DNA of 64,000 bases from Streptomyces sp. S4.7 (lineage in GTDB: Bacteria; Actinomycetota; Actinomycetes; Streptomycetales; Streptomycetaceae): contig NZ_CP048397.1 of the NCBI RefSeq assembly GCF_010384365.1, positions 1,054,001 through 1,118,000 on the forward strand, given 5' to 3'. How positions within the stretch are numbered: position 1 is the stretch's first letter; each line of letters begins with the position of its first letter. Positions 13,158 through 32,327 of the stretch are shown one piece after another. The notes beneath the pieces are model-generated. The model saw nothing but the letters and a program-made list of their open reading frames with translations, had not been told where the DNA came from and did not search any database. Position numbers and translations under genes: made by a program.

Positions 13158-13448
13158 TTACAGCGGCGCCTGTCGCTCGGACCGGAGACGTCTGCGTTCG
13201 GGCGTGTAGTGCCACCAAGGGCGGGCCGGCTTTCCTTCGGCCTGGTCCACGGCGGACATGACGGTGTCGAGGAGGCAGGGGTCGAGCCGCTGCCCGGCGG
13301 CGGCCGACATCCGCTCGTACAGTTCGACCGGGTCCTCCCCCACCAGCTGAGCGATCCTGGTGACACCGACGCCCTCGAAGTAACGGGCCACGGAACGGCC
13401 GACGTTGACCAGCTCGGTGAGGTCCGGCTCATCGTGTGTGGAGGCCAT
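13158..13448 (-). CDS. Cdd1-like helix-hairpin-helix protein
   Basis: This is a small protein of about 96 aa. The N-terminal half has an HhH-type segment, LTELVNVGRSVARYFEGVGV. The family pattern then continues with AQLVGEDPVELYERM, LDPCLLDTVMSAVDQAEG and the tryptophan pair PWWHYT, which is characteristic of the Cdd1 (TfoX-C/pathogenicity locus-like) family. ATG 13448 is preferred over GTG 13457 because AAGGAG stands eight bases upstream. The function is unknown; the HhH suggests nucleic-acid or protein binding. The tandem repeat abuts its stop codon. Confidence 0.75.
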   Translation of the reverse strand: MASTHDEPDLTELVNVGRSVARYFEGVGVTRIAQLVGEDPVELYERMSAAAGQRLDPCLLDTVMSAVDQAEGKPARPWWHYTPERRRLRSERQAPL

Positions 13449-13592
13449 CAGGACCACTCCTTCTCTCTCGTCCGGTCCGTCCGGGCCGCCGGCTCGGCCC
13501 GCTCCGTACAGGCCGCCGTACGCGTACCCGTACCGGCCACGTAACCACGCGGGCCCGGCCGGGTCTTGAACGAATCGGACACGCCCGCGGAG

Positions 13593-14204: not shown

Positions 14205-14283
14205 CTCGGCATGCTACCGGGCCGAAGCGAATTCATACGCCGTAGATTTCCAGGTGGTCGCGGGGCGTTCGGCGACCGCCGGT

Positions 14284-14736
14284 TCAGTGCGTCCTGCGCC
14301 GCCGGCCGTGCTCGGCGTCCCAGGACTCGATGACGAGGTGGTCGGCGGGGGTACCGAGATAGGTGAGCGCGACTTCACGGATGTCGATCCGGAAGAAGCC
14401 CGCGCCCACGTGCGGGTTCCCCGGCGGGGCCGGCGTCTCCACGAGGACTCCGGAGAGTTTGGCGTCTCCGTGCCAGGCCTCCCCCTCCGGGGCGTCGATC
14501 GTGGGGCTGTGGACCGCGACGCGCGGATCGCGTCGGGCGTCGCGGAGTTTGACCGATCCGCCCATCATCCCCAGAGTGACGTCGCCGTCCTTGAACTCCA
14601 GCTCAATCGCGCTGATTCGGGGTGAGCCGTCCCGGCGGAGCGTCGCGATCGTCTTGTTGACGCCCGCCGCGAAACACGCCGAGACCTTGTCGGCGAACTC
14701 CGGGTGCCCGCTCCGGATCTCGTGCCACGTCGCCAT
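14284..14736 (-). CDS. Pyridoxamine 5'-phosphate oxidase-fold protein
   Basis: This is a split-barrel flavin- or F420-binding protein of 150 aa. Typical PPOX blocks are IATLRRDGSPRISAIELEFKDGDVTLGMM, KLRDARRDPRVAVHSP and the C-terminal strand FRIDIREVALTYLG. The start ATG 14736 is chosen for GGGAGG eight bases upstream. The frame runs to 14772 but that extension has no ribosome site. It is probably an oxidoreductase acting on a small molecule. The cofactor (FMN or F420) cannot be decided from the sequence alone. Confidence 0.85.
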   Translation of the reverse strand: MATWHEIRSGHPEFADKVSACFAAGVNKTIATLRRDGSPRISAIELEFKDGDVTLGMMGGSVKLRDARRDPRVAVHSPTIDAPEGEAWHGDAKLSGVLVETPAPPGNPHVGAGFFRIDIREVALTYLGTPADHLVIESWDAEHGRRRRTH

Positions 14737-14780
14737 GGTGCGAACCTCCCGTTCGGTGGGCGTCTCCCCCACACCCGCAC

Positions 14781-14814
14781 TCTACAGCGTAGGAATATTT
14801 TCCTACACCGTAGA
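14781..14814. promoter_or_regulatory. Extended palindromic operator upstream of the PPOX gene
   Basis: The inner arms GTAGGAA-TATT-TTCCTAC (14789-14806) are perfect. They are flanked symmetrically, after three bases on each side, by TCTAC (14781-14785) and GTAGA (14810-14814). This gives a 34-bp two-tier palindrome. The right flank CCGTAGATTCCAGG recurs as CCGTAGATTTCCAGG at 14240-14254, upstream of the TetR gene. This is a good candidate for TetR binding. Confidence 0.7.
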
Positions 14815-14889
14815 TTCCAGGGAAGCTCGATGCCCCGCCCGGGAGCGGCTGCCTCCTGTGTGGTCAGCTCCGACGCGTCGAGGTGACGA

Positions 14890-15465
14890 TCACTCGACCG
14901 ACCCGGGGGTTCGCCGCCGGCCGGCTCTGAAGCGCGCCTTCTTCTGACGATTCCCGCACGTGTTCATGTCGCACCATTTGCGGGTGCGGCTCTGGCTGGT
15001 GTCGAAGAAGGCGGCCAGGCAGGTTGGTGACGCGCACAACGCGAGCTTTCCGTCTCGTTCGCCCGCGATGACGCCGATCGCGTCGGCGGCGATCACGCCG
15101 AGGGCGTCTTCCAGGCCCGAAGCCGAGCCGAGCAGCCATCGCCGCTCGCCCCCGGGCGTCAGGACCGCCGCGGCCCGCCCCTGTGCGCTGCGGTCATTGA
15201 TGACCTGGACAGCGGACTCCGGCAGAGCGTCCCGGATCGCGGCCGCTGTCGCGGCGGCGTGAATCGACTCCCTCAGCTCCCGGGCGAGGTCGAGCTGGGC
15301 GGTGGTGCAGGAGTCCACGGCGAGGCCGTTCACCGCGAGCCAGTCGACGAGTCGGTGCGGCACGGGGATGCGCTCCACGGCGTTGCCATGACGCTCCGAC
15401 AGGGTCCCCGTGAAGCTGGTCGCCAGCACACTGCCGAGGCGGAAGTCAGGGAACGCGGCACACAT
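14890..15465 (-). CDS. CGNR zinc-finger (ABATE-domain) regulator
   Basis: This is a putative DNA-binding regulator of 191 aa. The N-terminal ABATE-type domain (HRLVDWLAVNGL, LRESIHAAATAAA) is followed by a C-terminal zinc finger LCASPTCLAAFFD...RKWCDMNTCGNR, with four cysteines ending in the CGNR signature. The ribosome site AAGGTGG lies inside the left copy of a repeated palindromic sequence. It is divergent from the epoxide hydrolase gene, the usual layout for a local regulator and its target. Confidence 0.87.
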   Translation of the reverse strand: MCAAFPDFRLGSVLATSFTGTLSERHGNAVERIPVPHRLVDWLAVNGLAVDSCTTAQLDLARELRESIHAAATAAAIRDALPESAVQVINDRSAQGRAAAVLTPGGERRWLLGSASGLEDALGVIAADAIGVIAGERDGKLALCASPTCLAAFFDTSQSRTRKWCDMNTCGNRQKKARFRAGRRRTPGSVE

Positions 15466-15467
15466 AA

Positions 15468-15526
15468 AACCACCTTAGCCGGTTGCGGCGTGACCCGGAG
15501 AGCTGTTAGAACCGCCTTAGCCGGTT
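15468..15526. promoter_or_regulatory. Paired 17-bp operator-like repeats between CGNR regulator and epoxide hydrolase
   Basis: AACCACCTTAGCCGGTT (15468-15484) and AACCGCCTTAGCCGGTT (15510-15526) are identical at 16 of 17 positions and start 42 bp apart, about four helical turns. Each has AACC/GGTT ends in inverted orientation. The left copy overlaps the ribosome site of the CGNR gene, and the right copy lies 12 bp before that of the hydrolase. Confidence 0.72.
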
Positions 15527-15547
15527 CCACTGTGGCCAGGAGGTCCC

Positions 15548-16720
15548 ATGCCCCGTCCGACCAGCGACGTGCAAGCATTCGAAACCCACGCGACCGACGC
15601 CGACCTCGACGATCTGCGCGCGCGGCTGGCGGCGGCGCGGCTGCCGGAGGCCGAGACCGTCCGCGGCGCGGCGCCCGGCCCTCGCCGATGGGAACAGGGC
15701 GTCCCTCTCGCCGACCTCGTCGATGTCGTGAACTACTGGCGCACCGAGTACGACTGGCGGTCGTTCGAAGCGCGCCTCAACCGGATCGGCCAGTTCCGCA
15801 CGACCATCGATGATCTGGGAATCCACTTCCTGCACCGACGGTCCGCGCGCGCGGACGCCACTCCTGTGATCCTGACGCACGGCTGGCCGGGCAGCATCGC
15901 CGAGTTCACCGATGTGGTGGACGAACTGGCGGATCCGAAAGACGCCGACGCGCCCGCGTTCCACGTCGTGGCGCCGTCGCTGCCGGGCTTCGGACACAGC
16001 GACAAGCCGGCCACCACCGGGTGGGGAACCGAGAAGATCGCGGCCGCCTGGGTGGAACTGATGGGAAGGCTCGGCTACGACAAGTTCGCGGCCCACGGCG
16101 GCGACTGGGGAGGTGTGATCACCACCGTCCTCGGCGGCAGGTTCCCCGCGCACGTTCTCGGCATCCACTCGACCCTCGCCCAGGCACCTCCCGGCCTGAC
16201 GACGGACGGGCTGACGGCGGGCGAGCGCGAGTGGACCGATCAGACCCGCGATTTCTGGCGCCACCGTGCCGCGTACGCGAAGCAGCAGGCGACCCGGCCG
16301 CAGACCATCGGCTACTCGCTCGTCGACTCACCGGTCGGGCTTCTCGCCTGGATCCTCGACAAGTTCGCCGAGTGGTCGGACACCGAGGACAGCCCGTTCG
16401 AGCTGATTTCCAGGGACCGTGTTCTTGACGACGTCACCCTGTACTGGCTGACGCGGACCGGCGCGTCGGCGGCCCGTATCTACTACGAGAGCCACCACTC
16501 CCTGAACCCCGAACTCCGGGTGGACGTGCCGTCGGCGATCAGCATGTATCCCCGCGACATCGAGAAGTGTCCGCGCCCCTGGGCACAGGAGCGGTACCGG
16601 CGGATCGTCCGCTGGAGGGAGCCCGAGGTCGGGGGACACTTCCCGTCGCTGGAGGTCCCCGGGTACTTCGTCCGGGATCTGCGGGAGGGCCTCGCGGCGG
16701 TGCTGGCCGCGAATCGCTGA
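15548..16720 (+). CDS. Epoxide hydrolase (EHN domain, alpha/beta hydrolase)
   Basis: This enzyme opens epoxides to diols by covalent catalysis. It has 390 aa. The N-terminal EHN segment (residues 8-105, DLDDLRARLAAARLPEAE, WEQGVPLADLVDVVNYW, YDWRSFEARLN) is followed by the alpha/beta hydrolase core with oxyanion motif HGWPGS (111-116), nucleophile Asp186 in HGGDWGG, and the catalytic His in the late GGHFPSLEVP block. The start ATG 15548 follows AGGAGG by five bases. It is divergent from the CGNR regulator. The substrate is unknown. The length and motifs match microsomal-type bacterial epoxide hydrolases. Confidence 0.92.
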   Translation: MPRPTSDVQAFETHATDADLDDLRARLAAARLPEAETVRGAAPGPRRWEQGVPLADLVDVVNYWRTEYDWRSFEARLNRIGQFRTTIDDLGIHFLHRRSARADATPVILTHGWPGSIAEFTDVVDELADPKDADAPAFHVVAPSLPGFGHSDKPATTGWGTEKIAAAWVELMGRLGYDKFAAHGGDWGGVITTVLGGRFPAHVLGIHSTLAQAPPGLTTDGLTAGEREWTDQTRDFWRHRAAYAKQQATRPQTIGYSLVDSPVGLLAWILDKFAEWSDTEDSPFELISRDRVLDDVTLYWLTRTGASAARIYYESHHSLNPELRVDVPSAISMYPRDIEKCPRPWAQERYRRIVRWREPEVGGHFPSLEVPGYFVRDLREGLAAVLAANR

Positions 16721-16826: not shown

Positions 16827-19800
16827 TCAGCACAGACAGCCCGTCCCGCCGGGGCGCGGGTCCTGCCACCCGTACCGGCGCTCGGTCCGCGCGGACACCA
16901 GGGACCGCTCCTTCAAATTGGCCGCGGGAGACCGCGTACCCGTGGCTCTGAAGGGCTCCAGCAGCGAGGACACCGTACGGACCGTGCCGCCCGTCACCAC
17001 CGTCCGTACGGCCGCCGCCGCGTCGATGTCCCGCAGCGGATCGCCCTCCACGAAGACCAGATCGGCGAGCATGCCCGCTTCGAGCATGCCGAGGTCGCTG
17101 TCCATGCCCATGCGCCGCACGGGGTTGGCGGTGGCGGTGCGCAGCGCCTCGTACGGGGTGAAGCCGCCCCGCACCATCGCGCGCAGGTTCTGGTGCAGCG
17201 ACAGGGCGGGATCGTCCAGCGGGGCGTCCGAGCCCGCGATGACGCTGCCGCCGCCGCGCTGTACGCGCAGCAGCATGTCGACGCCGCCCGCCAGCAGCGC
17301 GCGGTTCAGCCCGGCGTCCGGGCCGCCGGCCGCGTCCGCCTTGGCCACCAGGACCGTGTAGTCCCACGGCGGGTAGAGCAGGCGGGTCCGTTCGTCGGTG
17401 ACCAGGGAACGGTCGTCGGCGAGCAGCACGGAGGAGTTCATCAGGGTGGAGGTGACGGGCATCGAGGCGGCCGTCAGGACGGCGATGGCGTCCTCGTAGG
17501 CCCTGCCCAGCCGGGTCTGGGTCTGCGAGTAGCCGACGCGGTTGCCGCCGCCCGTGTGCTCCATGGCGTCCATGCCGTACGCCGCGTGCGGGTAGGCGTA
17601 GTGCGAGGTGACGAGCAGCCCCCGCTCGTGCGCCTGGCGGGTGACCGCGCGCTCCAGTGGGGCCTGCAGCCGGATGTAGGTCTTGACGAGGTCGTAACTG
17701 AGCCGTTCGGCGCGCTCCATCTCCAGCCGCAGCTGGTCGGTGCCGACCACGGGACGGGCGAAGTTCCAGAACACCCGCGCCCCGTCCAGGGCGTCGCCCG
17801 TACCGAAGAAGCGCGGCCCCACCTGGGCGCCCGACTCGATGGCCTCCCTCGTCTCCACCATCTGGTAGGCCGGATCGCCGGGTGACAGCACGGTGGTGAT
17901 GCCGTACGACAGGAGCAGGCGTCCCGTGCGGTCGCCCCACTGCCGGCCGCGCAGGTGCCAGTGCAGATGGGCGTCGACCAGGCCGGGCATCGCGGTCAGG
18001 CCCGACAGGTCCACGACGGTGTCGCCCCGGCCCTGTCCCGCGGGGCGGACCGCGGCGATCCGGTCGCCCTTGACGACGATGTCGGCGGCGCCGCGCAGTT
18101 GCTCGGCGCGCCCGTCCCACACGGCACCGGCGCGGAGTACCACGGTGCGGGCCGTCGCCGGTCTGCGGTAGGTGAGGGGGACGGGCACGGTGCGCGGGGT
18201 GCCGCCGGTGAGCGGGACGGTGCGCAGCGTGCCGTTGCTCAGATAGAAGAGACGGCCGTTCGTGTCCACGGAGAGGGAGTCGGTGACCTCCGTGGTGATC
18301 TGCTCGGGTGCGCCGGTGATCTGTCCGGTGGGATCGACGGGCACCCGCCACGCCGTACTCTCCATGACGAAGACGAAGTGCTTGCCGTCCGGGGTCCACA
18401 CGGGTCCGTCGTCGCCCCGGGTGGCGATCGACCGGTGGGCGGCCACGGGCTGGGAGCGGGTGGCGCCGGTGGCCAGGTCGACGGTGAGGACTTCGCTCAG
18501 CCCGGCCCGGTTGCGCCTGGAGTAGGGCTGGTTGGCGGCGACCGCGAGGTGGGCGCCGTCCGGGGACCAGGTGGGGCGGCCCGGCTGGAAGATTACGGGC
18601 AGCACCTGGCGTACGGCGCCGGAGGCGAGTTCCAGCACCCAGGTCGCGCCGTTCTCGTCCTGGTAGGCGATCTTCGTGCCGTCCGGGGACCAGCGGGGGG
18701 TGAGCTGCGCGCCCGGCAGCGAGGTCAGCCGTACCGGCTCACCGCCGGTGAGGTCCCGGCGCCACAGTGCGGCCGTTCCCGAGCGGTCGCTCGCGTGGAC
18801 GAGGGCCGTGCCGTCGGGGGACCAGTCGGGGTCGGAGTTGAAGAATCCGTCGTCGGCCAGTCTGACGGGGGCCTCGCCGGTCTTCATCACCCACAGCGCG
18901 TTCAGGGCCCGGAAGGCGACGCGCTGCCCGTCGCGGGAGACGACCGGGCTCGCGATTCCCCTGGCCTGCCGGGCCGCCCGGGAGGTGAAGTCCCTGACCC
19001 GCGGCGTCCAGGGCTTGCGGGTGAAGGTGACCGTCGCGGTGAAGTCCACCGTCCGGGGGGTGCCGCCGGGGCGCAGCCGCCGGACGCGCCCGCCTGCCGT
19101 GTAGAGCAGGTCGCCGTCCGGGGTCCAGGATGTGCGCAGGGCGTGCACGTCCTCGCCGGCGGCGGCCACCTGGCCGTCGATCATGACATCGGCGCGGGTC
19201 CCCGTGAACTGTACGTAGCTCACCCGGCGCCCGTCCGGGCTGGGCGCCGGGCCGAAGATCTTCGCTCCGGCGCTCGCGGTGATCAGCCGGGTCCTGGTCC
19301 CGGTCGCCACGTCCACGGAGTCGATGGCCGCGTCGTTCACCGTGCAGACGATCGTCCTGCCGTCCGCCGACCAGGCGGGGGTGCCGTCCTCGTCGGGGCC
19401 GGTGGTGAGCTGCGTACGGACGCCGGTGGCCGGGTCGAGCAGCCACAGGTCGTTGCTGCCCGACCGGTCGGAGGTGAAGACGATCCGGCTGCCGTCGGGC
19501 GCGTACTGCGGCTCGCGGTTGTCGTAGTCGTCGTCGGTCAGCCGGGTGAGGCCGGTGCCGTCGCGCTTCACCGACCACAGCTGGTAGGCGCCGTCGCGGA
19601 AGGACTGGAACACGACACGGCTGCCGTCCGGTGCCCAGTGCGGCTGGGTGGCGTCCTGGAGTTCGCCGGTGAGCCGGACGGCGGCGCCGCCCGCACCGGG
19701 GACCACCCAGACGGCGCTCAGCACGTCGATGGCGAGGCCGGTGCCGTCGGGAGAGAGGGCGGCGGCCATGTTGGTGCCCTCGGAGACGGTGACGGTGGCG

Positions 19801-20006
19801 GTACGAGGCGCACCGCCGGGCCGCTCGGCGGGCCGCCCCTGCTCCGTGCCGGCCGCGGCGGCCCGGCCCGCGCTCGTACCCGCGGCGGTCAGCGCGCCGG
19901 CGGTCACCGCGCCGCTCACGGCCAGGACATGCCGTCTGCTCGGGCCGGGAGCGGGGGCGGGGTTCGTGACGTCCATCAGGTTCTCGTGTTTCTTCAGGAG
20001 GGACAT
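16827..20006 (-). CDS. Tat-exported beta-propeller/amidohydrolase fusion
   Basis: This is a large secreted hydrolase of about 1059 aa. A twin-arginine signal (PSRRHVLAVSG then an Ala-rich core) precedes a TolB/WD40-like propeller with repeated SPDG/APDG/WSPDG motifs (residues about 75-620). A C-terminal amidohydrolase domain follows (about 640-1010), with metal motif DAHLHWH, later SHYAYPHAA, EHTGG and the Asp in GSDAPLDD. Prolidase/imidazolonepropionase-like enzymes of this kind act on peptides or cyclic amides. The start is unsure: ATG 20006 lies four bases past the aminotransferase stop, suggesting coupling, while ATG 19976 gives a more ordinary Tat leader. It is the last gene of the dpg run, so it may process or detoxify the product, or be an unrelated neighbour. 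The extreme C-terminus contains an 11-bp duplicated DNA segment (16802-16824). Confidence 0.85.
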   Translation of the reverse strand: MSLLKKHENLMDVTNPAPAPGPSRRHVLAVSGAVTAGALTAAGTSAGRAAAAGTEQGRPAERPGGAPRTATVTVSEGTNMAAALSPDGTGLAIDVLSAVWVVPGAGGAAVRLTGELQDATQPHWAPDGSRVVFQSFRDGAYQLWSVKRDGTGLTRLTDDDYDNREPQYAPDGSRIVFTSDRSGSNDLWLLDPATGVRTQLTTGPDEDGTPAWSADGRTIVCTVNDAAIDSVDVATGTRTRLITASAGAKIFGPAPSPDGRRVSYVQFTGTRADVMIDGQVAAAGEDVHALRTSWTPDGDLLYTAGGRVRRLRPGGTPRTVDFTATVTFTRKPWTPRVRDFTSRAARQARGIASPVVSRDGQRVAFRALNALWVMKTGEAPVRLADDGFFNSDPDWSPDGTALVHASDRSGTAALWRRDLTGGEPVRLTSLPGAQLTPRWSPDGTKIAYQDENGATWVLELASGAVRQVLPVIFQPGRPTWSPDGAHLAVAANQPYSRRNRAGLSEVLTVDLATGATRSQPVAAHRSIATRGDDGPVWTPDGKHFVFVMESTAWRVPVDPTGQITGAPEQITTEVTDSLSVDTNGRLFYLSNGTLRTVPLTGGTPRTVPVPLTYRRPATARTVVLRAGAVWDGRAEQLRGAADIVVKGDRIAAVRPAGQGRGDTVVDLSGLTAMPGLVDAHLHWHLRGRQWGDRTGRLLLSYGITTVLSPGDPAYQMVETREAIESGAQVGPRFFGTGDALDGARVFWNFARPVVGTDQLRLEMERAERLSYDLVKTYIRLQAPLERAVTRQAHERGLLVTSHYAYPHAAYGMDAMEHTGGGNRVGYSQTQTRLGRAYEDAIAVLTAASMPVTSTLMNSSVLLADDRSLVTDERTRLLYPPWDYTVLVAKADAAGGPDAGLNRALLAGGVDMLLRVQRGGGSVIAGSDAPLDDPALSLHQNLRAMVRGGFTPYEALRTATANPVRRMGMDSDLGMLEAGMLADLVFVEGDPLRDIDAAAAVRTVVTGGTVRTVSSLLEPFRATGTRSPAANLKERSLVSARTERRYGWQDPRPGGTGCLC

Positions 20007-22875: not shown

Positions 22876-23640
22876 TCAGCGCGCCTGCGCCAACGAGCCG
22901 TCGGCCGGGGCCTGTTCGGCCGCCGACTGTCCGGCCGTGGTACGGCGGCGCAGGCTTCGGTCGCACGCGGCCAGATGGGCGCCCAGGGCCTCCTCGTAAC
23001 TGAGGGTGGCGTCGAACAGCAGCCTGCGCCGAATCGACCACTCGCGGCCCGGCACGGCCGACAGCTCGCCCGCCACCAGCACCGCGCGGCGCAGGGCCGC
23101 CTCGCCGCCGTCCGCCGTCTCGTCCACCAGGTCCAGATCAGCGGCCTGCTCACCGTCCAGCCAGGGGCGGCGCAGCAGCAGGCGGCGCGCCCGCGCCGTG
23201 CCGATCTGCTGCGCCAGCCGGTGCAGCGCCGTGCTCGGCCAGGCGCCGTCCTCGGCGCCCGGGAGCCGCAGGCGCGCGTCGCCGGCCGCGATCCGGTAGT
23301 CGGCGGTGAGCAGCGCCTCCAGCGCGGGGCCGGTGCAGGTGCCCTCAACGAGCGCGAGGGTCGGGCGCCCCGAGGTCTCCAGCCGGCGCAGTGCCCGCTC
23401 CCAGGTGTTGACCAGATGGATGCCCGTACCGACGGGGGACGCGCCCTCCGCGGCGCCGGCGCCGCCCAGCAGGAGCAGGACGACACCGCGGTCGGCGCCC
23501 TCCGCCTTCTCGGCGGCGGTGCGCACGCGGTCGACCAGCGCCGGGGTCAGTTCCTCGTCGCCGACCGTCAGGACGGCGGCTGCCTCGTCGTGGAGACGGA
23601 CGGTCAGGGCGTTGGGGGTATCGGTATCCGTGCCGGACAC
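22876..23640 (-). CDS. dpgB: Enoyl-CoA hydratase-like DpgB
   Basis: This is a divergent crotonase-fold protein of about 254 aa. DpgB, with DpgD, assists DpgA in aromatising the tetraketide to 3,5-dihydroxyphenylacetyl-CoA. Visible blocks are VVLLLLGGAGAAEGASP, VNTWERALRRLETSGRPTLALVEGTCTGPALEALLTADYRIA and LPGAEDGAWPSTALHRLAQQIG. GTG 23640 is preferred: GAAGGAA lies eight bases upstream, and the alternative ATG 23736 adds only a Pro/Ser-rich leader with no ribosome site. It follows dpgA directly, as in glycopeptide clusters. The C-terminus carries a low-similarity extension. Confidence 0.85.
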   Translation of the reverse strand: MSGTDTDTPNALTVRLHDEAAAVLTVGDEELTPALVDRVRTAAEKAEGADRGVVLLLLGGAGAAEGASPVGTGIHLVNTWERALRRLETSGRPTLALVEGTCTGPALEALLTADYRIAAGDARLRLPGAEDGAWPSTALHRLAQQIGTARARRLLLRRPWLDGEQAADLDLVDETADGGEAALRRAVLVAGELSAVPGREWSIRRRLLFDATLSYEEALGAHLAACDRSLRRRTTAGQSAAEQAPADGSLAQAR

Positions 23641-23749
23641 GGTCACACTTCCTTCGTCGTCCGCCGGTGAGGGCGGTGAGGGTGGTGGGGGCAGTGGGGA
23701 TGATTCGGTGGGTGCCGTGGGTGCGGTCGGTGTCATGGCGCGGGTGCCG

Positions 23750-24952
23750 TCACCACTGGAGGAGCGCCGTCTCGATGGTGGAGCCGGGGCCCATGGTCAT
23801 GAGCACGCCGTAGTCACCGCGCCGCACCCGGCCCTCCTCCATCAGGCGCTCGTAGGAGAACAGGAACGAGCCGCTCGACAGGTTTCCGTAGTCGCGCAGC
23901 ACCCCGGTGGTGTGGCGCAGTGCGTACGTACTGAGGCCGAGGTTGACCTTCACCGAGTCGATGACCTTCTTGCCGCCCGAGTGGACCAGCCAGTGGTCGA
24001 TGTCCGCGCGTTCCAGACCGGTGCCGCCGAGCAGCCGGTCGACCACCTCCTCGGCGTTCGCCCCGACGACATACGGCACGTCACGGTCGAGGAAGAAGCT
24101 GAACTTGCCCTGGTCGTCGTCCCAGTCGTAGCGCATCGCGTCCACCGCTTCGGGGATGATGCGGCTGGCGGCCTTCAGTACGGTGCCCACGGGCGCCGCC
24201 TCGTCGGCCTCCGCCGTCTTTGTCGCGTGCGCGCCGTGCGCCGCGCGTGCCGTTCCCGCCGGGTCGGTGACCATCACGACGGCCGCCGCGCCGTCGCCGA
24301 AGAGGCTGTTCACCACCGAGGTGCGCATGGTGCCGTCGAAGACATAGGCGGCGGAGCAGACCTCCGCGCAGACCATGACGGCCGCCTGCCCGGGGTTGGC
24401 CGCCGACCAGGACGCGACGGCGGCCATGGCGTTGAGGCCGGCGTTGCAGCCCATGCCCACGACGTCGAGCCGGCCGGTGGAGACCGGCAGCCCCGCTTCC
24501 TTGACGAGATGGGCGGAGAAACCGGGTGTGAGCAGCCCCGTGGTGGTCACACAGCACAGGTATCCGACATCGGAGAGCGCGAGGCCGGCCCGCTTCAGGG
24601 CCGTCTCCAGCGCCTCCCTGCCCGTCCTGACGCCCTGCTCCTTGTGCTTGGCGAGCAGTTCGCCCTGGGTCTCGGTCTTGCGTGTGCCGTCGGCCAGTTC
24701 GGGCGGCAGGGTCAGATAGCGGCGCTCGATGGCGCTGTTGAGGAAGACGGACCTGATCCGGGGGTCCTCGATGCCGAACAGCTCCAGCATCTCGCGCTGT
24801 GTGTAGGAGTTGGCGGGGGTGGCCGTACCGAAGCCGACAACCGATGGCCGGGGCCCCGCGTTCGCCGTGCTGAGCCGCTGTCCGGGCGCCCGGGTCGCGG
24901 GCTCGGTGGGGACGGCGGCGGAGGCCGGGGCCGTGGGTTCTGTGGCGGTCAT
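23750..24952 (-). CDS. dpgA: Type III polyketide synthase DpgA (3,5-dihydroxyphenylacetyl-CoA synthase)
   Basis: This is a chalcone-synthase-fold enzyme that condenses four malonyl-CoA into the precursor of 3,5-dihydroxyphenylacetyl-CoA. It has 400 aa. The catalytic triad is Cys169 in DVVGMGCNAGLNAM, His324 in WLVHSGGKK and Asn357 in YGNLSSGSFLF. Other type III landmarks are GFGTATPAN, CCVTTTGLLTPG, SLFGDGAAA and the terminal MGPGSTIETALLQW. The start ATG 24952 overlaps the upstream oxoamine synthase stop (ATGA) and has GGAGGT six bases upstream. The assignment as DpgA, rather than another type III PKS, rests on the sequence plus DpgB, DpgC and DpgD partners in the same run. Confidence 0.93.
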   Translation of the reverse strand: MTATEPTAPASAAVPTEPATRAPGQRLSTANAGPRPSVVGFGTATPANSYTQREMLELFGIEDPRIRSVFLNSAIERRYLTLPPELADGTRKTETQGELLAKHKEQGVRTGREALETALKRAGLALSDVGYLCCVTTTGLLTPGFSAHLVKEAGLPVSTGRLDVVGMGCNAGLNAMAAVASWSAANPGQAAVMVCAEVCSAAYVFDGTMRTSVVNSLFGDGAAAVVMVTDPAGTARAAHGAHATKTAEADEAAPVGTVLKAASRIIPEAVDAMRYDWDDDQGKFSFFLDRDVPYVVGANAEEVVDRLLGGTGLERADIDHWLVHSGGKKVIDSVKVNLGLSTYALRHTTGVLRDYGNLSSGSFLFSYERLMEEGRVRRGDYGVLMTMGPGSTIETALLQW

Positions 24953-26193
24953 GCCGGCACCTCCAGCTCGTTGGTGGCCAGCTCGATCTGCTCGGTGGTG
25001 TGCGCCGCCGAGACGGCCATCCGGATCAGACCGCTGCCCTTGGCCACGGTCGGGAAGAACGCGGGGGTGACGATGACACCCGCCTTGCGCAGCCGCGCCG
25101 CGGTCACCAGCGCGTCCTCCTCGCTCTTGAAGAGCGCCCCGCGGATCGGCGACCGGGTGCCCGCGTTGAACAGCGCGCCTCCCGTGCGGGAGTCGAAGAG
25201 TTCGGTGTTGCGCCACAGATCCCGCTGGAGCCGCGCGACCGTACCGTCGAGATGCAGCTCCGCCGACGCCCGGCAGGCGCTGATGACGGGCAGCGCGATG
25301 GGGCCGCCGAAGATCAGCGGGTTGCCGAATCTTCGCAGCTCGACCGTGTCCTCCTCGGTGTTCAGCAGGACGAAGCCGCCGTTGCTGCCGCCGAACGCCT
25401 TGGCGAGCGAGCCGACGAGGATCACCGAGGCGGGCAGCCCGCCCGGCAGATGGCGGAACTCCTCGTACGCGAAACCCGCCCCCTGTTCACCGGTGATCGA
25501 CACACCGTGCGCGTCGTCCACGTACAGATAGCCCTCGGCCGCCGCGCACAGGTCGTACAGCGCGGCCACGTCGATGAGCCCGCCCATGGACCCCACGCCG
25601 TCCACGAGGACGATCGGCGTGCGCCCGGCGTCGCGCACCGCCGCCAGCCGGACGGCGAGGTCGTCCAGGTCCTCACAGTCGAACCGGTCCACGTCGCCGA
25701 TCTGTTCGAGCACGCCGCGCAGGACCTGGATGGACGCGTGCGCGGTGCGCTCGATCAGGAAGGTGACCCCGCTCGCCGACACCGGGTAGCTGGGCAGCAC
25801 ACCCGTTCCCAGCAGCGGCAGCACCCCCAGGTGGACGCTGCCGACGGCCGTGAAGCACGTGGCGTGCCGGCCGCCGTAGATGACGCCGAGCATCCGCTCC
25901 AGCGATTCGAGGTCCTCGTACCGCATCCGGGTGCGTGACGAGGAGAACTGGACGCCGACCCGGCGCAGGCTGGCGACGGCCGCCTCCACCAGGGCCGGGT
26001 GGGTGTCGAGGCCCAGATAGGAGCAGGAGATGAACTCGACGGCGCTGCGGCCGTCGGCGAGCGTCACCTCCTTCCCCTCCCGCCCGGTGAAGACATGGCT
26101 GGTCAGGTCGGTGGCGATGGCCCGGGTCAGCGCGTCCGACGTCTTGTCTACGCGCGTGGCTACCCAGTTGTGTCGTTCGATCGTACGAGGCAT
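24949..26193 (-). CDS. Alpha-oxoamine synthase (BioF/KBL/ALAS family)
   Basis: This is a PLP enzyme of 414 aa that normally joins an amino acid to an acyl-CoA with loss of CO2, giving an alpha-aminoketone. The family hallmarks are FISCSYLGLDTHPALVEAA, YVDDAHG (226-229) and the PLP lysine K265 in GSLAKAFGGSNGG. The usual block around residues 108-125 is CFTAVGSVHLGVLPLL rather than the common nucleophile-facing GY/GF-N pattern. That suggests a specialised subgroup, not housekeeping BioF. The start ATG 26193 has GGAG eight bases upstream. It is translationally coupled to dpgA (ATGA). It is not part of the known DPG route, so its presence points to an additional tailoring step. The substrates are unknown. 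Confidence 0.83.
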   Translation of the reverse strand: MPRTIERHNWVATRVDKTSDALTRAIATDLTSHVFTGREGKEVTLADGRSAVEFISCSYLGLDTHPALVEAAVASLRRVGVQFSSSRTRMRYEDLESLERMLGVIYGGRHATCFTAVGSVHLGVLPLLGTGVLPSYPVSASGVTFLIERTAHASIQVLRGVLEQIGDVDRFDCEDLDDLAVRLAAVRDAGRTPIVLVDGVGSMGGLIDVAALYDLCAAAEGYLYVDDAHGVSITGEQGAGFAYEEFRHLPGGLPASVILVGSLAKAFGGSNGGFVLLNTEEDTVELRRFGNPLIFGGPIALPVISACRASAELHLDGTVARLQRDLWRNTELFDSRTGGALFNAGTRSPIRGALFKSEEDALVTAARLRKAGVIVTPAFFPTVAKGSGLIRMAVSAAHTTEQIELATNELEVPA

Positions 26194-26307
26194 CGGAGTG
26201 TCTCCAGGGATGCGTACGGATGCGTGAGAAGGAGCGGTCGGAGCGGTGGTCTCGGCGGCGCGGAAATCTCGCGGGAGCCGCGTGACGGACGTGCGGCGGA
26301 AGGGAGT

Positions 26308-27801
26308 TCAGCCGGCGGTGCGGTTGACGAAGAAGGGTGTCTTGCCCCGTGCCGTGTGGTGGAACTCGGAGCTGTCGACCCGCTCCAGCGTCAGCCCGCG
26401 GTACAGCGGCGCGGTGAAGACCCTCCCCATGTGGTAGGCGCCGTGCAGCGCGGCGACGGCGTCCTCGGTCGTGACCGAGGGCGGCGTACGTTCCGAGACC
26501 AGCAGCCGGATCGAGAAGCCCGGATCGTGCTGGGTCACCTGGAACTGGCAGTCGGCCGGGTCGCTGATGCCCAGCGTGGCCAGCTGCTCCATCACCAGAT
26601 CACGGGAGATGGTGGTGCTGTCGACATTCATGGACATGCCCACCCGGCCCGTGAGGGTCAGCTGCCGCGCGGCGCTGCCGCACAGACAGGGGCGGGTCTC
26701 GATGAATCCCTCGTCGCCGATCCGGTAGCGCAGCAGCGGCATACCGGAGTCGGTGAGCATCGTGACGACCACCTCGCCGATCCGGCCGTCGGGCTGTATC
26801 CGCTCGGCGTCCGTGTCGACCACCTCGACCACCAGCACGTCCTCGTGCAGATGGTGGGTCGAACCGCTCTGGTAGGTGCACTGGTAGCCGACCGGCCCGG
26901 TCTCGCTGGTGGAGTACGAGAACGACCGCACCCGCAGATCGGGCCGGGCGTCCGCGAGTTGACGCTCCCGGCTCTCACCGAGGATCTCCCCGATGTACAG
27001 CAGACTGTCCACACCGCGCAGGAGTTCACGTGTCGCGTCGCCGGTCAGCAGCCCCGTCCCCGCCGAGGGTGAGCAGACGACCGCGTCCACCTGGTTCTCG
27101 CGGAGCAGCTGAGCCGTCTCCGGGGAGGCGAGGGCGCTGCTGCCCATGGGGAAGGACATGGCCGGCAGCAGCTCCGTGACCTCCTGGGCGAAGGTGAACG
27201 CGCCGTTCAGCTCGCCCGGGTAGAGGAAGTTGGCGATACGGCGGGGATGCGGTCGCAGCGCGCTGCGCACCCCGCGCGCGCCGAGAGCCGACACCCGGCG
27301 GCTGAACTCCCACGAGTGGTAGATCATCTTGCGCCGTCCCGATGTACCGCTGGAGCGCAGGACGAGCCCGGAGCGGCCGTCGCCGAGCACCAGATTCTCC
27401 GAGGCGGGCGGACAGGACGCCTGGAGATCGGCCGGTGAGAACAGGGGGAGTTTGAGCAGATCGCGCGGCACCCGCACGTCGAGCGCGCCGGGCCAGCAGG
27501 CGGCCACCGCCGGATTCCTCTTCAGGGCCTCCACCGTGCGGGCGAGATTGCGCTGCTGCATTTCCTCGAGCTGCGCCCGCGTCAGAATGTCGAGATTCTC
27601 TGCCAGTTCAATCTTTGACGACTCACCGGCACGCGCCTCGCTGTGGTGCGAGGTCGGATACATTTCCCCCAGCACGATTTCCTCACTTGGTCCACTGTTC
27701 AACAGATTCACCTGTCCGCACCACTCGACCGAGGCATGCTTTTCGGCCATTGCGTCGCTGTCGCCGGGCTGGAAATAGTTAAATTCCGATTGCTTCCGCA
27801 T
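26308..27801 (-). CDS. Phenylacetate-CoA ligase-like adenylate-forming enzyme (PaaK-like)
   Basis: This is an ANL-superfamily ligase that activates a carboxylic acid as adenylate and usually transfers it to CoA. It has about 497 aa. The adenylate P-loop RSSGTSGRRKM (about residues 149-159), YSTSETGPVGYQC and YRIGDEGFIETRPCLCGS are PaaK-type motifs. The C-terminal lid ends with HTARGKTPFFV, containing the conserved GK lysine. An N-terminal extension of about 90 residues precedes the usual start of similarity. ATG 27801 was chosen because it lies 17 bases after the dpgD stop. It sits between dpgD and the oxoamine synthase. It could make the acyl-CoA for the synthase or activate an aryl acid. 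Confidence 0.83.
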   Translation of the reverse strand: MRKQSEFNYFQPGDSDAMAEKHASVEWCGQVNLLNSGPSEEIVLGEMYPTSHHSEARAGESSKIELAENLDILTRAQLEEMQQRNLARTVEALKRNPAVAACWPGALDVRVPRDLLKLPLFSPADLQASCPPASENLVLGDGRSGLVLRSSGTSGRRKMIYHSWEFSRRVSALGARGVRSALRPHPRRIANFLYPGELNGAFTFAQEVTELLPAMSFPMGSSALASPETAQLLRENQVDAVVCSPSAGTGLLTGDATRELLRGVDSLLYIGEILGESRERQLADARPDLRVRSFSYSTSETGPVGYQCTYQSGSTHHLHEDVLVVEVVDTDAERIQPDGRIGEVVVTMLTDSGMPLLRYRIGDEGFIETRPCLCGSAARQLTLTGRVGMSMNVDSTTISRDLVMEQLATLGISDPADCQFQVTQHDPGFSIRLLVSERTPPSVTTEDAVAALHGAYHMGRVFTAPLYRGLTLERVDSSEFHHTARGKTPFFVNRTAG

Positions 27802-28971: not shown

Positions 28972-29979
28972 GTGAATATGCCAGCTCACCATGTTGATCG
29001 CTCCCCGCTCCCGATAGACGAGGAGATCACCTCGGCCTACGCATTCCTCTGCGGTTCGGGGAACGCGTCCGTCGAACAGATCGCCGCCGCGCTGGAAATC
29101 GGAATCGAACGAGCGCGGCAATTGGTCGGCCGCCTCACGGAGTTACATCTGATCGATTCCGCCGGGGACGGCACGTACACACCGGGATCGCCCCGGGCGC
29201 TCGGCGCCGGCGTCATCGCCCCCGCCATCAGGGAGCTGGAGAGCGGCCAGCAGCAGATCATCAGGATGATGACGGAGCTGGACGCCCTCACCAAGATCTA
29301 CGAGCGGAGTCCAGCCGAGCGGCTGCGCCGTCCCCGGATCGAGATCCTGCCCGAGGTCACCGCCGTACGGGCGGTCCTGACCGAACTCTCGGCAGGGGCT
29401 CGGACGGAGATCCTCACCTCCCAGCCGGGCGGCGCCCGCCCCGCCGATGTGCTGCGCGAGTCCCTCGAACGGACGGAAGCGGTGCTGAGCCGCGGCATCA
29501 CCATGCGCACCGTCTACCAGTACACCGCCCAGTTCTCACAGGTCACGGTGGACTACGTCCGCCATGTGACGGAGCGGGGCGTCGAAGTGCGCATGCTCGG
29601 CGACGCCTTGATGCGGATGATCATCTTCGACCGGGAGATCGCCGTCCTGCCGCAGTACGACCGGGACGGTGCCGTGGTCGTCAGCGACCGGAGCATCGTG
29701 GACTTCGCCGTGCAGGCGTTCGAACGCGCCTGGCCGGTGGCGAGGCCGTTCCCCGTCTCGTACGACCGGGGCCAGGTCAAGAGCACCTCGGTCGAAATCC
29801 AGCTCTCCATCTCACGGTTGCTGGTGGAAGGGCTGGAGGACAAGGTGATCGCCCGCCGCATGGGCATGTCGCTGCGGACCTGCCAGCGCCACATCTCGGA
29901 GATCATGTCGCGCATCGGGGCCCGCAACCGGATGCACGCGGGCTATCTCCTGGGGAAGCTGATCGACAGTCAGAACTGA
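28972..29979 (+). CDS. LuxR-type cluster-situated regulator with a TTA codon
   Basis: This is a DNA-binding activator candidate of 335 aa. The N-terminus has a winged-helix, TrmB-like segment (residues about 20-60, ASVEQIAAALEIGIERARQLV). The middle resembles a phospholipase D-like/TrmB effector region. The C-terminus has a LuxR helix-turn-helix (about 275-325, LLVEGLEDKVIARRMGMSLRTCQRHISEIMSRIG). The start is GTG 28972 with GAGG seven bases upstream. Codon 58 is TTA (29143-29145), a codon that in Streptomyces depends on the developmental tRNA encoded by bldA. It faces the biosynthetic run and converges on the MFS gene with a 21-bp gap. It is probably the pathway-specific switch. Confidence 0.88.
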   Translation: MNMPAHHVDRSPLPIDEEITSAYAFLCGSGNASVEQIAAALEIGIERARQLVGRLTELHLIDSAGDGTYTPGSPRALGAGVIAPAIRELESGQQQIIRMMTELDALTKIYERSPAERLRRPRIEILPEVTAVRAVLTELSAGARTEILTSQPGGARPADVLRESLERTEAVLSRGITMRTVYQYTAQFSQVTVDYVRHVTERGVEVRMLGDALMRMIIFDREIAVLPQYDRDGAVVVSDRSIVDFAVQAFERAWPVARPFPVSYDRGQVKSTSVEIQLSISRLLVEGLEDKVIARRMGMSLRTCQRHISEIMSRIGARNRMHAGYLLGKLIDSQN

Positions 29980-30000: not shown

Positions 30001-31332
30001 TCAGGACAGGTCCCGGGCGGACGAGGCTCCGGGCGAGGCGTCCGGCGAGTCGTCGGGTGAGCCGTCCGGGGAACCATCGGCGGAACCGCCGGGCGCGACC
30101 TCGCGCGTGGCCTTGGCAGCGCCCGAGGGCACGACGTACCGGGTGACGGCGAGACCGCCCACGAGCAGCACCAGCCCCGCCAGCACACCCACCCCCATGC
30201 CGAAGTGGGCCGGCTGCGGCAGCCAGGACGCGGAGGTGCTGACCGCGAGCCCGGCCGCCATGTTCCCGCAGATCTCACCGATGGCCGTGACCAGGCTGAC
30301 GAGGCCGATGACATCCGTCAGCCGTGTCTGCGGCACCGTGTCCGCCGCCTCCACCTGGATCTTCGGGAAGGCCAGGCACTCCGCGACGGCGAACAGCGTC
30401 AGCCCCGCGAGGATGAGCGTCAGACTGCCGCTGAAGGAGAGCACGAGCCCCGTGCCCCCGCCCACCGCGACGATCAGATACAGCGCGCGGCGCCTCAGCC
30501 GGGTGAAGAACGGCAGGAGCGCCAGCTGGATGGCGATGATCGCCAGCGGCTGGAAGCTGAGGAACAGCGTCCGGTGCTCCGCCTGGGCGGGGTTGACCAC
30601 CTCGTACAGCAGGATCATCGCGTAGAGGAACCCCATCGCGAAGTAGATCGCGAAGGTGTAGCCGAGCACCACCGCCACCGCGGGCGTCCTGAGGACGGTG
30701 AGCCGTCCGCGCAGCCCGTTCGCACCCCGGGGCGGCAGCGCGAAGTCGAGCCCCCGGGCGAGGAGTCCGACGGTGATCCCGATCACCGTCTCGACGACGG
30801 CCAGGACGAGCAGCGCGGGAACCCCGGCCCGTCCGACCGGCCCCGCCGCGAGCGGCGCCAGCACATAGGCGGTGTTCAGCAGGATGAAGAAGACCTGGAA
30901 GACCTGGCTGCGGCGGTCGTCGGTCGCCGCGGCGACCAACAGGGAACGCACCGCGGGGCGTGAGATGCCCACGCCGAGACCGGCCAGCACCGCGAAGAGA
31001 TACAGCGCCGGAGCCGAGGTGCTGACGGCGACGGTGACGAATCCGGCGGCCTTCAGCGACGAGGCGATCGTCAGGACCCAGGCCGGATGGACCCGGCTGA
31101 ACGCGATCGGCGTGACCAGCGCGCCGACCAGGGCCGAGCCGACATGCACGGACAGCGCGAAGGAGAAGACGGACGGCTCGATCCGCCCGCCGTGCAGGAC
31201 CGCCACCGGAAGCAGCGTGAGCACCATCGCCAGACCGAAGTTGGACAGCAGGGTGAAACCCAGCCCCGCTCCCACGGCCCGGGGGTACCAGCCCGCCTTC
31301 GGCGTGCCCGTCTCGGTGGCCGTTCCCGTCAT
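30001..31332 (-). CDS. MFS transporter, probable product exporter of the dpg locus
   Basis: This is an integral membrane protein of 443 aa with about 12 hydrophobic helices. The MFS pattern includes GLGFTLLSNFGLAMVLTLLPVAVL (helix 1) and the cytoplasmic loop between the two halves. The C-terminal 40 residues are a Ser/Asp/Pro-rich tail (GSPDGSPDDSPDASPG). The start ATG 31332 overlaps the ATP-grasp ligase stop (ATGA), so the pair is co-translated. Export of, or self-resistance to, the locus product is the likely role; the substrate is unknown. Confidence 0.85.
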   Translation of the reverse strand: MTGTATETGTPKAGWYPRAVGAGLGFTLLSNFGLAMVLTLLPVAVLHGGRIEPSVFSFALSVHVGSALVGALVTPIAFSRVHPAWVLTIASSLKAAGFVTVAVSTSAPALYLFAVLAGLGVGISRPAVRSLLVAAATDDRRSQVFQVFFILLNTAYVLAPLAAGPVGRAGVPALLVLAVVETVIGITVGLLARGLDFALPPRGANGLRGRLTVLRTPAVAVVLGYTFAIYFAMGFLYAMILLYEVVNPAQAEHRTLFLSFQPLAIIAIQLALLPFFTRLRRRALYLIVAVGGGTGLVLSFSGSLTLILAGLTLFAVAECLAFPKIQVEAADTVPQTRLTDVIGLVSLVTAIGEICGNMAAGLAVSTSASWLPQPAHFGMGVGVLAGLVLLVGGLAVTRYVVPSGAAKATREVAPGGSADGSPDGSPDDSPDASPGASSARDLS

Positions 31333-32327
31333 GCGCTGTGCGCCGGGGCGGGCTCGGACAGCAGCCGGCCGACCCACGGGAAGAACGCGTCGGCCAACTG
31401 CGACCGGGCGGGCTCGGGCATCGAGGAGAACTCCGCCATGGCGGTGCCCCACTCGCCGAGCACCGGCCCGTCGTCGGTCAGCAGCCAGTCCACACAGAGA
31501 TATCCGGCCTGGAGATCCGCGACGATCCGCTCCACGTCACCGAGCACGGTCGCCACGTCCGGGTTGGCGCTCGAACTGCCGCCCTGGGTGATGTTGGCGA
31601 GGTACGCGCCCTCCGCCGGGCTGCGCAGCATGCTCGCGGCGAACTTCCCGTCGACCATCGCCACCCGCAGATCACCCTTGTTGGGCAGGTACTCCTGCAC
31701 GATGTAGCTCTGCCCGGTCTGGGACGCGATGTCGACGGCGGCCCGCAACTGCTCGTAGCTGTCCAGCTTCAGCACACCGAAGCCGATGCCCATCTCGCGC
31801 GCCTTGAGGATGTACGGCCCCTCGCCGATCTCCTTGCGGACGACGTCGAGCCCCTTGCGCGCGTAGCGCCCGAAGGGCAGCGCCACCGTCTTCGGCACCC
31901 GCACCCCGAGCGTCGACGCACGGGCCAGGATCGCCAGCTTGTCGCGCTCCAGGCATTCCGGCCCCACGAGCGAGCGGTTGAGCAGGACGGAGTCGCTGGC
32001 GTCGATGGCCCGGTAGATGCCCCGCAGGAAATGAGTGGCCTGCGGGTCGCCGCTCACATCGTCCACGATGTACGCCTGCCGCGTCCGGAGCAGATCCACC
32101 CCGTCGTGCCACAGCCGGGGGCGCTCGTCGCACGCGGGCACGAGCTCGTTCGCGCTGATGAACCGGAAGGCGAATCCGTGCCTCGCGCAGGGCTCCGCCC
32201 AGCGCTCCGTCATCTGCTCGGTGATCTTGTCCACATACTCCGGCAGAAAGTCGTCCGGATGGCAGATCCACGTCACCAGGCGCTCATTCGCCACGATCGC
32301 AACTCCTACGAGAGACCTCATCGGCAT
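31329..32327 (-). CDS. ATP-grasp ligase (RimK-like)
   Basis: This is a carboxylate-amine ligase of about 332 aa. ATP-grasp enzymes activate a carboxylate as acyl-phosphate and form an amide or peptide bond. Visible features are LARASTLGVRVPKTVALPFG (start of the grasp domain), ILKAREMGIGFGV (ATP-binding Lys), YIVQEYLPNKGDLRVAMVDGK (adenine-binding Glu and the RV strand), and the metal-binding end CVDWLLTDDGPVLGEWGTAM. Two starts are plausible: ATG 32327 behind GGGGG, or GTG 32294 with AGGAG eight bases upstream. It is coupled to the MFS exporter. In the absence of any peptide synthetase nearby, it is the best candidate for joining DPG to another residue. The substrates are inferred, not shown. 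Confidence 0.83.
   Translation of the reverse strand: MPMRSLVGVAIVANERLVTWICHPDDFLPEYVDKITEQMTERWAEPCARHGFAFRFISANELVPACDERPRLWHDGVDLLRTRQAYIVDDVSGDPQATHFLRGIYRAIDASDSVLLNRSLVGPECLERDKLAILARASTLGVRVPKTVALPFGRYARKGLDVVRKEIGEGPYILKAREMGIGFGVLKLDSYEQLRAAVDIASQTGQSYIVQEYLPNKGDLRVAMVDGKFAASMLRSPAEGAYLANITQGGSSSANPDVATVLGDVERIVADLQAGYLCVDWLLTDDGPVLGEWGTAMAEFSSMPEPARSQLADAFFPWVGRLLSEPAPAHSA

What the first reader, a model, noticed from the sequence alone, without database searches (positions are those of the whole stretch)
24949..27801. Oxoamine synthase and PaaK-like ligase inserted inside the dpg operon
Between dpgD and dpgA lie a CoA ligase and an alpha-oxoamine synthase, the latter overlapping dpgA by four bases. 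Neither is needed for DPG. The pair could make and use an acyl-CoA: the ligase activates a carboxylic acid and the synthase condenses it with an amino acid (perhaps DPG itself) with loss of CO2, giving an aminoketone. Alternatively the synthase could use 3,5-dihydroxyphenylacetyl-CoA, the DpgA-D product, directly.
Basis: partly seen in the sequence, partly recalled or inferred. Interest (0 to 1): 0.68.

Follow-up and report, generated by a model that had tools for sequence, protein, structure and literature searches.

The report
Dihydroxyphenylglycine aminoketone gene cluster
A Streptomyces gene cluster appears to make the unusual amino acid dihydroxyphenylglycine and, with no giant peptide-assembly enzyme in the cluster, turn it into an exported small ketone; sister clusters in other actinobacteria seem to do the same around a different unusual amino acid, p-aminophenylalanine.

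Summary
In detail: a PaaK-like ligase (LIG) and an alpha-oxoamine synthase (AOS) lie between a crotonase gene and dpgA; AOS and dpgA share ATGA. AOS is not housekeeping: better BioF- and KBL-like hits lie elsewhere in the genome, and AOS is in a separate supported clade. The pair belongs to a 15.5-kb cluster (ATP-grasp, MFS, crotonase, LIG, AOS, dpgA-B-C, aminotransferase, propeller-amidohydrolase); the nearest NRPS condensation domain is about 190 kb away. All 15 loci found with this AOS clade sit beside a route to an unusual aromatic amino acid: dpgABC in 3, papABC-like in 12; 13 of 15 have LIG. Best explanation: AOS condenses that amino acid (here DPG) with an acyl-CoA, probably from LIG; the aminoketone is capped by an ATP-grasp enzyme and exported. 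Direct use of dihydroxyphenylacetyl-CoA is disfavoured, because 12 relatives show no dpg genes. Substrates are inferred. The genome has many distant NRPS modules and only this DpgA, so DPG may also feed an NRPS. Relatives by logic (ketomemicin, dynaplanin, Pseudomonas pap pyrazine) make it a new variant of a known kind.

The parts
31329..32327 (-). RimK/GSH-synthetase-type ATP-grasp ligase
   Evidence: Pfam RimK and GSH-S_ATP over cut-off; 99% in L001, 62% in G191 cluster; start codon candidate
30001..31332 (-). MFS exporter, start overlapping the ATP-grasp stop
   Evidence: Pfam MFS_1; 44% homologue in G191 cluster; start
28972..29979 (+). regulator with LuxR-type C-terminal HTH, divergent from the crotonase-LIG-AOS-dpg genes
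   Evidence: Pfam GerE; 96% in L001
27819..28673 (-). crotonase/enoyl-CoA hydratase in the dpgD position (not over the DpgD cut-off)
   Evidence: NF042430 177.7 vs 400 bits; no copy found in the G191 stretches read
26308..27663 (-). LIG: PaaK-like adenylating ligase, about 451 aa
   Evidence: SSG, YST(S/T)ETGP and RxKxP positions kept in all 8 rows of alignment A2; dN/dS 0.16
24949..26193 (-). AOS: alpha-oxoamine synthase, 414 aa
   Evidence: NF005697 over cut-off; K265, D226, H229, H152, R391 conserved; tree
23750..24952 (-). dpgA, 3,5-dihydroxyphenylacetyl-CoA synthase
   Evidence: NF042429 620.8 vs 425 bits; ATGA overlap with AOS
22876..23736 (-). dpgB
   Evidence: NF042431 184 vs 140 bits
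21324..22691 (-). dpgC, (3,5-dihydroxyphenyl)acetyl-CoA dioxygenase (start not settled)
   Evidence: NF042432 598.2 vs 530 bits
20011..21327 (-). class I aminotransferase, expected to turn dihydroxyphenylglyoxylate into DPG
   Evidence: Pfam Aminotran_1_2; 61% homologue next to dpgC in G191; no NCBIfam family over cut-off among those shown; role inferred
16827..20006 (-). beta-propeller plus amidohydrolase protein with twin-arginine-like leader (motif recalled)
   Evidence: Pfam PD40 and Amidohydro_1; Xaa-Pro dipeptidase and lasso-isopeptidase models match but below cut-off; 52-53% homologues in G191 and in pap-type G177

Best explanation
The ligase and synthase are the carbon-carbon-bond-forming step of a cluster, without NRPS genes of its own, for a DPG-derived aminoketone. 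DpgA/B make 3,5-dihydroxyphenylacetyl-CoA, DpgC oxidises it to 3,5-dihydroxyphenylglyoxylate and the aminotransferase gives DPG (pathway recalled). LIG adenylates a carboxylic acid and makes its CoA thioester. AOS binds DPG on PLP and condenses it with that acyl-CoA, losing CO2, to give a 1-(3,5-dihydroxyphenyl)-1-amino-2-ketone. The ATP-grasp ligase caps the amine with an amino acid, which would also prevent self-condensation to a pyrazine; the MFS protein exports the product; the propeller-amidohydrolase, probably exported, trims it or protects the producer. In the sister clusters the same AOS clade (usually with LIG) is wired to papABC-like genes, so p-aminophenylalanine replaces DPG. Shown: gene content, order, conservation, clade, conserved catalytic positions. 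Inferred: every substrate and the order of steps.
For: 15 of 15 clade loci lie beside a route to a non-proteinogenic aromatic amino acid: dpgABC + aminotransferase in 3 (window, L001, G191), papABC-like in 12, one of them cut by its contig end. LIG is present in 13 of 15 (absent within 20 kb in G230; G780's contig begins inside PabAB), and close LIG relatives occur in only 3 of 391 genus genomes, all 3 with the AOS within about 8 kb. ATP-grasp genes are seen in 13 of 15 by tblastn; Pfam confirmed the four of these that were scanned (window, G230, G428, G815). AOS keeps the PLP lysine, Asp, both His and the carboxylate-binding Arg (roles recalled) and has Ser/Ala where KBL has the gating Val (gate role from passages of PMC11906848). 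DpgC and the aminotransferase are kept in both dpg-type lineages, which points to DPG rather than only dihydroxyphenylacetyl-CoA. No condensation domain lies within about 190 kb of the cluster. Precedents: papABC + papDEF turn 4-aminophenylalanine into a dimethyl-bis(aminobenzyl)pyrazine in P. fluorescens (passage); KtmB and DynZ, PLP C-acyltransferases, build pseudopeptides (passages; section).
Against: In the ThAOS study L-Phg, L-Phe and L-Tyr were inactive or indeterminable with all variants, those with Ser or Ala at the gate included, so the gate residue alone does not establish an aromatic substrate. G230 lacks LIG within 20 kb, so LIG is not universal. LIG passes no curated family cut-off, and PaaK-like enzymes are not all CoA ligases (recalled). 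The AOS of G069 and G363 (36-37% identical) and of enterobacterial plasmids (38-43%) have no dpg or pap set in the stretches searched or viewed; G363 has only a gene 25% identical to dpgA. The genome holds 50 condensation-domain matches elsewhere, in several large NRPS reading frames, and only one DpgA over cut-off, the one in the window, so DPG could serve a distant NRPS. In G177 the gene after LIG had no Pfam match, so no ATP-grasp was found there. The AOS model failed (mean pLDDT 46). The DPG link rests on 3 loci, two of them near-identical.
Confidence: 0.46

Rival explanations
1. AOS uses DPG (or p-aminophenylalanine) with ordinary acetyl-CoA, as inferred for the Pseudomonas pap pyrazine; LIG acts later, forming an amide or another bond from an acyl-adenylate.
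For: Pyrazine precedent from papABC+papDEF (passage); G230 has AOS and papABC without LIG in 20 kb; weak BagE/FevW similarity of LIG, 45 vs 800 bits (amide/ester chemistry of BagE recalled).
Against: LIG accompanies AOS in 13 of 15 loci and is adjacent to it in the three dpg-type loci; 13 of 15 loci also hold an ATP-grasp gene that could do the amide formation.
Confidence: 0.24
2. The aromatic part is the acyl donor: AOS condenses an aryl-acyl-CoA (dihydroxyphenylacetyl-CoA from DpgA/B, or an aryl-CoA from LIG) with a proteinogenic amino acid, as DynZ is proposed to do with phenylacetyl-CoA and arginine.
For: AOS-dpgA translational overlap; dynaplanin model (section read); PaaK-like enzymes are typically aryl-acid ligases (recalled).
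Against: 12 of 15 clade members show no dpg genes in the stretches read, so dihydroxyphenylacetyl-CoA cannot be the common donor; DpgC, which consumes that thioester, and the aminotransferase are kept; LIG would be redundant for it. An aryl-CoA made by LIG is not excluded.
Confidence: 0.17
3. The dpg genes supply DPG to an NRPS elsewhere in the genome, and LIG/AOS serve a separate product that merely shares the cluster.
For: 50 condensation-domain matches in the genome, many in one stretch near C1:7.59-7.63 Mb, and a single DpgA over cut-off, in the window.
Against: The nearest condensation domain is about 190 kb away; LIG, AOS, ATP-grasp, MFS, dpgABC, aminotransferase and propeller genes stay together in a second, diverged genome (G191, 44-64% identity); the same AOS clade keeps to aromatic-amino-acid genes in 12 pap-type loci. 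Adenylation-domain specificities of the distant NRPSs were not examined.
Confidence: 0.08
4. AOS is a housekeeping BioF or KBL that happens to lie in the cluster.
For: Same fold family; TIGR00858 matches at 151 bits.
Against: A BioF-like gene beside a bioB-like ORF and a KBL-like gene beside a threonine-dehydrogenase-like ORF are elsewhere in the genome with 380 and 377 bits on the bioF model, though neither passes its 426-bit cut-off either (neighbours recognised by eye from the ORFs printed); AOS sits across a 100/100 branch from them; curated cut-offs not met.
Confidence: 0.01

Closest known systems
papABC-papDEF pyrazine pathway of Pseudomonas fluorescens SBW25 (Masuo 2020, seen only as cited in a passage of PMC9814548)
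   Same: Unusual aromatic amino acid made by dedicated genes, then turned by neighbouring genes into a product whose structure implies an aminoketone intermediate (inference)
   Different: DPG instead of 4-aminophenylalanine; PaaK-like ligase, ATP-grasp ligase and propeller-amidohydrolase here; homology of its synthase to this AOS was not tested
Ketomemicin clusters (ktmA-F)
   Same: NRPS-independent; PLP C-acyltransferase KtmB plus ATP-grasp ligase KtmD (PMC11943689, passage)
   Different: No aldolase, dehydratase, dehydrogenase or amidinotransferase among the cluster genes scanned here; has dpg genes and a PaaK-like ligase
Dynaplanin cluster (DynZ/DynY)
   Same: Stand-alone PLP C-acyltransferase proposed to form an alpha-aminoketone whose amine is then acylated (PMC9239090, section read)
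   Different: DynZ proposed to use arginine and phenylacetyl-CoA; amine capped by a GNAT-family enzyme, not ATP-grasp; sequences not compared
dpg operons of glycopeptide antibiotics (recalled)
   Same: dpgA, dpgB, dpgC over curated cut-offs
   Different: No condensation domain within about 190 kb; ligase and AOS between the crotonase and dpgA

Membership tests
alpha-oxoamine synthase superfamily | Conserved PLP lysine, aspartate, stacking His and carboxylate Arg | tested here: met
   K265, D226, H152, H229, R391 invariant in the 27 rows of A1 and in the 26-row alignment; residue roles recalled
BioF (AONS) | NCBIfam TIGR00858 cut-off 426 bits; grouping with BioF | tested here: not met
   151 bits; separated in tree. 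The genome's own BioF-like gene also misses this cut-off (379.8 bits), so the cut-off alone is not decisive
KBL | NCBIfam TIGR01822 cut-off 493 bits; grouping with KBL | tested here: not met
   139.8 bits; 100/100 branch between them; gate Val replaced by Ser
PRK07505 subfamily (NF005697) | curated cut-off 342 bits | tested here: met
   372.5 bits; the model is described only as 'hypothetical protein'
PaaK phenylacetate-CoA ligase | NCBIfam TIGR02155 cut-off 646 bits | tested here: not met
   39.2 bits; adenylation-type motifs nevertheless present
DPG pathway (DpgA, DpgB, DpgC) | NF042429, NF042431, NF042432 over cut-off | tested here: met
   620.8, 184 and 598.2 bits
DpgD | NF042430 cut-off 400 bits | tested here: not met
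   177.7 bits
Ketomemicin-type (ktm) cluster | KtmA aldolase, KtmC dehydratase, KtmE amidinotransferase, KtmF dehydrogenase with KtmB and KtmD | tested here: inconclusive
   No such genes among the cluster genes scanned, but ktm sequences themselves were not compared
AOS acting on DPG | Decarboxylative condensation of DPG with an acyl-CoA | not testable with these tools
   Needs purified enzyme

The most novel reading that the evidence does not exclude
A family of actinobacterial clusters without NRPS genes of their own couples a swappable route to an unusual aromatic amino acid (DPG in Streptomyces; p-aminophenylalanine in Streptomyces and in a second genus of the class, there with a diazotase-like enzyme) to one ligase/oxoamine-synthase/ATP-grasp module, making exported aminoacyl aminoketones of a class not yet described.
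Probability: 0.38. Interest if true: 0.75.

Novelty: new variant of a known kind. Interest (0 to 1): 0.57.

Why it matters
DPG is known to me (recalled) as an NRPS building block of glycopeptides and related antibiotics. If this reading is right it is also the amino-acid partner of an oxoamine synthase, which would give a handle for finding pseudopeptide or aminoketone clusters that NRPS/PKS mining can miss (the dynaplanin cluster was missed by typical algorithms, abstract of PMC9239090), and an AOS that may accept arylglycines, which the engineered ThAOS variants were not shown to do (L-Phg inactive or indeterminable). The dpg/pap swap beside one AOS clade offers natural pairs for mapping amino-acid specificity in this enzyme family.

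Tried and rejected
Structure prediction of AOS with 27 rows gave mean pLDDT 46.3; it was not used for fold searches. Stravidin/amiclenomycin relation (chorismate genes, BioF-like genes) was considered and followed in passages of PMC13336041; nothing seen there tied it to this cluster beyond chorismate genes. C5N-unit logic (ALAS + ligase, recalled) was rejected because the ALAS model gives 76 vs 339 bits. Of the 33 loci from the genome-contig scan, only L001 is a close relative; the other 32 are 29-34% identical, mostly KBL-like (recalled resemblance) and share the C-terminal peptide used as a search pattern; they served as outgroups and in the structure alignment. Rhodococcus plasmid pap genes show no AOS in the annotated stretch, and no Rhodococcus plasmid is among the 58 records with an AOS match at 1e-30. 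Ten paper searches: 11, 12, 24, 37, 42 and 84 returned none; one returned 5 papers, none holding ATP-grasp, oxoamine or PaaK; others gave the papers cited. So 'unreported' holds only for these searches of open-licence PMC papers. Papers: PMC9239090 (abstract, outline, passages, one section), PMC11943689, PMC11906848, PMC13336041 and PMC9814548 (passages). Rows dropped before counts: G069 and G363 (36-37% identity) are not among the 15 clade loci; the tree holds 11 of the 15 (L072, L075, L077, L078 left out) and the LIG alignment 8 of 13. L077/G780 is cut by its contig end, and L078/G813 begins at a contig end. The propeller gene was not matched by the dN/dS script.
Full report
Observation. The ligase (LIG, 26308-27663, minus) and alpha-oxoamine synthase (AOS, 24949-26193, minus) are real ORFs between a crotonase gene and dpgA; AOS stop and dpgA start share ATGA at 24949-24952. 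DpgA, DpgB and DpgC pass their NCBIfam cut-offs (620.8/425, 184/140, 598.2/530 bits), whereas the crotonase does not pass DpgD (177.7/400). The finding's outer limit 27801 is probably too far upstream: that ATG is not kept in L001, where the stretch has an in-frame stop. Between the window and L001 (Streptomyces sp. NP-1717, cluster genes 93-99% identical) dN/dS is 0.21 crotonase, 0.16 LIG, 0.12 AOS, 0.19 dpgA, 0.12 aminotransferase and 0.09 ATP-grasp; the propeller gene was not matched by the script. These genes are under purifying selection.

The cluster. On the minus strand: ATP-grasp 31329-32327, MFS 30001-31332, then crotonase, LIG, AOS, dpgA, dpgB, dpgC, aminotransferase and a propeller-amidohydrolase 16827-20006 with a twin-arginine-like leader (motif recalled); a LuxR-C regulator 28972-29979 on the plus strand. 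The genome has 50 condensation-domain matches, the nearest about 190 kb from the cluster, so the cluster has no NRPS of its own; but the genome is rich in NRPS and its only DpgA over cut-off is the window's. The cluster lies between rpe (12183) and rsmB (32480; both names recalled from the sequences), an interval that in the window also holds about 4 kb of other ORFs (13158-16720). In G000 the rpe and rsmB matches are 19.6 kb apart; of the 13 same-genus relatives with both on one contig, 5 have under 200 bp (G003, G005, G006, G012, G014) and 8 have about 0.75-4.8 kb, one of these from a partial match. This fits an insertion at a variable site.

Not housekeeping. NCBIfam places AOS over cut-off only in PRK07505 (NF005697), described as hypothetical protein; bioF, kbl, SPT and ALAS models are far below theirs. 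The genome has two better bioF-model hits (379.8 and 377.1 bits, against 150.8 for AOS, none over the 426-bit cut-off): one beside a bioB-like ORF, the other a KBL-like gene beside a threonine-dehydrogenase-like ORF (recognised by eye). In a 26-row tree holding 11 of the 15 clade loci, dpg-type and pap-type AOS form a clade (99/99), with the enterobacterial plasmid AOS as sister (96/97), separated from KBL and BioF by a 100/100 branch; the program warns of long branches.

Relatives. AOS of this clade (about 49% or more identical) occurs in 5 of 392 genomes of the genus, one further genome (G428) of 396 in the phylum sample, 9 of 248 of G428's genus (G428 included), and L001: 15 loci with the window. 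Three carry dpgABC plus aminotransferase (window, L001, G191); 12 carry PabAB, a chorismate-mutase-family gene (11 seen; the twelfth contig is cut) and a prephenate-dehydrogenase-like gene, that is a papABC-like set for p-aminophenylalanine (tblastn; family models on single members). LIG is found in 13 of 15. In one genus sample LIG relatives occur in 3 of 391 genomes, all with this AOS nearby. ATP-grasp genes are seen in 13 of 15 by tblastn; in G177 the gene after LIG had no Pfam match, and G813's contig begins just beyond its MFS gene. A diazotase-like AMP-binding enzyme (341.6 bits, cut-off 975) accompanies 10 of 12 pap-type loci. The propeller-amidohydrolase is also in G191 and in pap-type G177. 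DpgA passes its cut-off in 55 of 392 genus genomes, and only G000 and G191 of these have the AOS; at genome level that overlap is small, so the evidence is the adjacency.

Mechanism. In 8 LIG sequences the SSG of the first motif, YST(S/T)ETGP and a C-terminal RxKxP with its lysine are invariant (motif roles recalled). AOS keeps the catalytic residues and has Ser at the position of the KBL gating valine (Ala in G191); in ThAOS smaller residues there widened amino-acid scope, but L-Phg, L-Phe and L-Tyr stayed inactive or indeterminable (passages). Since the AOS clade always travels with a route to an unusual aromatic amino acid but mostly without dpg, the common factor is an aromatic amino acid rather than dihydroxyphenylacetyl-CoA. 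I therefore take DPG as the amino-acid partner and the LIG product as the likely acyl donor; ATP-grasp capping and export follow by analogy with ketomemicin (passage) and dynaplanin (section). All substrates are inferred.

Rivals and limits. AOS may use acetyl-CoA, with LIG making an amide; the Pseudomonas papABC-DEF pyrazine (passage) is the nearest precedent. Or an aryl-CoA may be the donor, as proposed for DynZ. Or DPG may serve a distant NRPS. Dpg-type evidence rests on three loci, two nearly identical. L042 groups weakly with the pap-type (87/73). The structure model failed. Sequences of KtmB, DynZ and Pseudomonas PapD-F could not be compared.

Verdict.

Noticed in passing
   Followed up: partly
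L041, L082, L084 (plasmids of Klebsiella variicola and E. coli): A two-gene unit, MFS transporter followed by an AOS 38-43% identical to the window's, sits on large enterobacterial plasmids (two typed conjugative, pKP187 non-mobilizable); in K. variicola a Trp/Tyr permease gene follows.
   Followed up: partly
L080, L081 (Rhodococcus plasmids NZ_CP023721, NZ_CP077418): papABC-like genes with DAHP synthase, diiron oxygenase, MBL-fold protein, AMP-binding protein and a chloramphenicol-type efflux gene, which looks like a chloramphenicol/corynecin-type cluster (recalled resemblance).
   Followed up: no
window 12183-33904: The interval between rpe and rsmB runs from about 0.1 to 4.8 kb in 13 same-genus relatives and is 19.6 kb here, so it may be an insertion hot spot.
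   Followed up: partly
L042 7340-8395: The G191 dpg-type cluster carries an extra O-methyltransferase between the ATP-grasp and MFS genes, suggesting a methylated product variant.
   Followed up: no
G000 C1:7590420-7633745 (outside the window): A dense run of NRPS condensation domains in very large reading frames; whether any module takes DPG was not examined.
   Followed up: no
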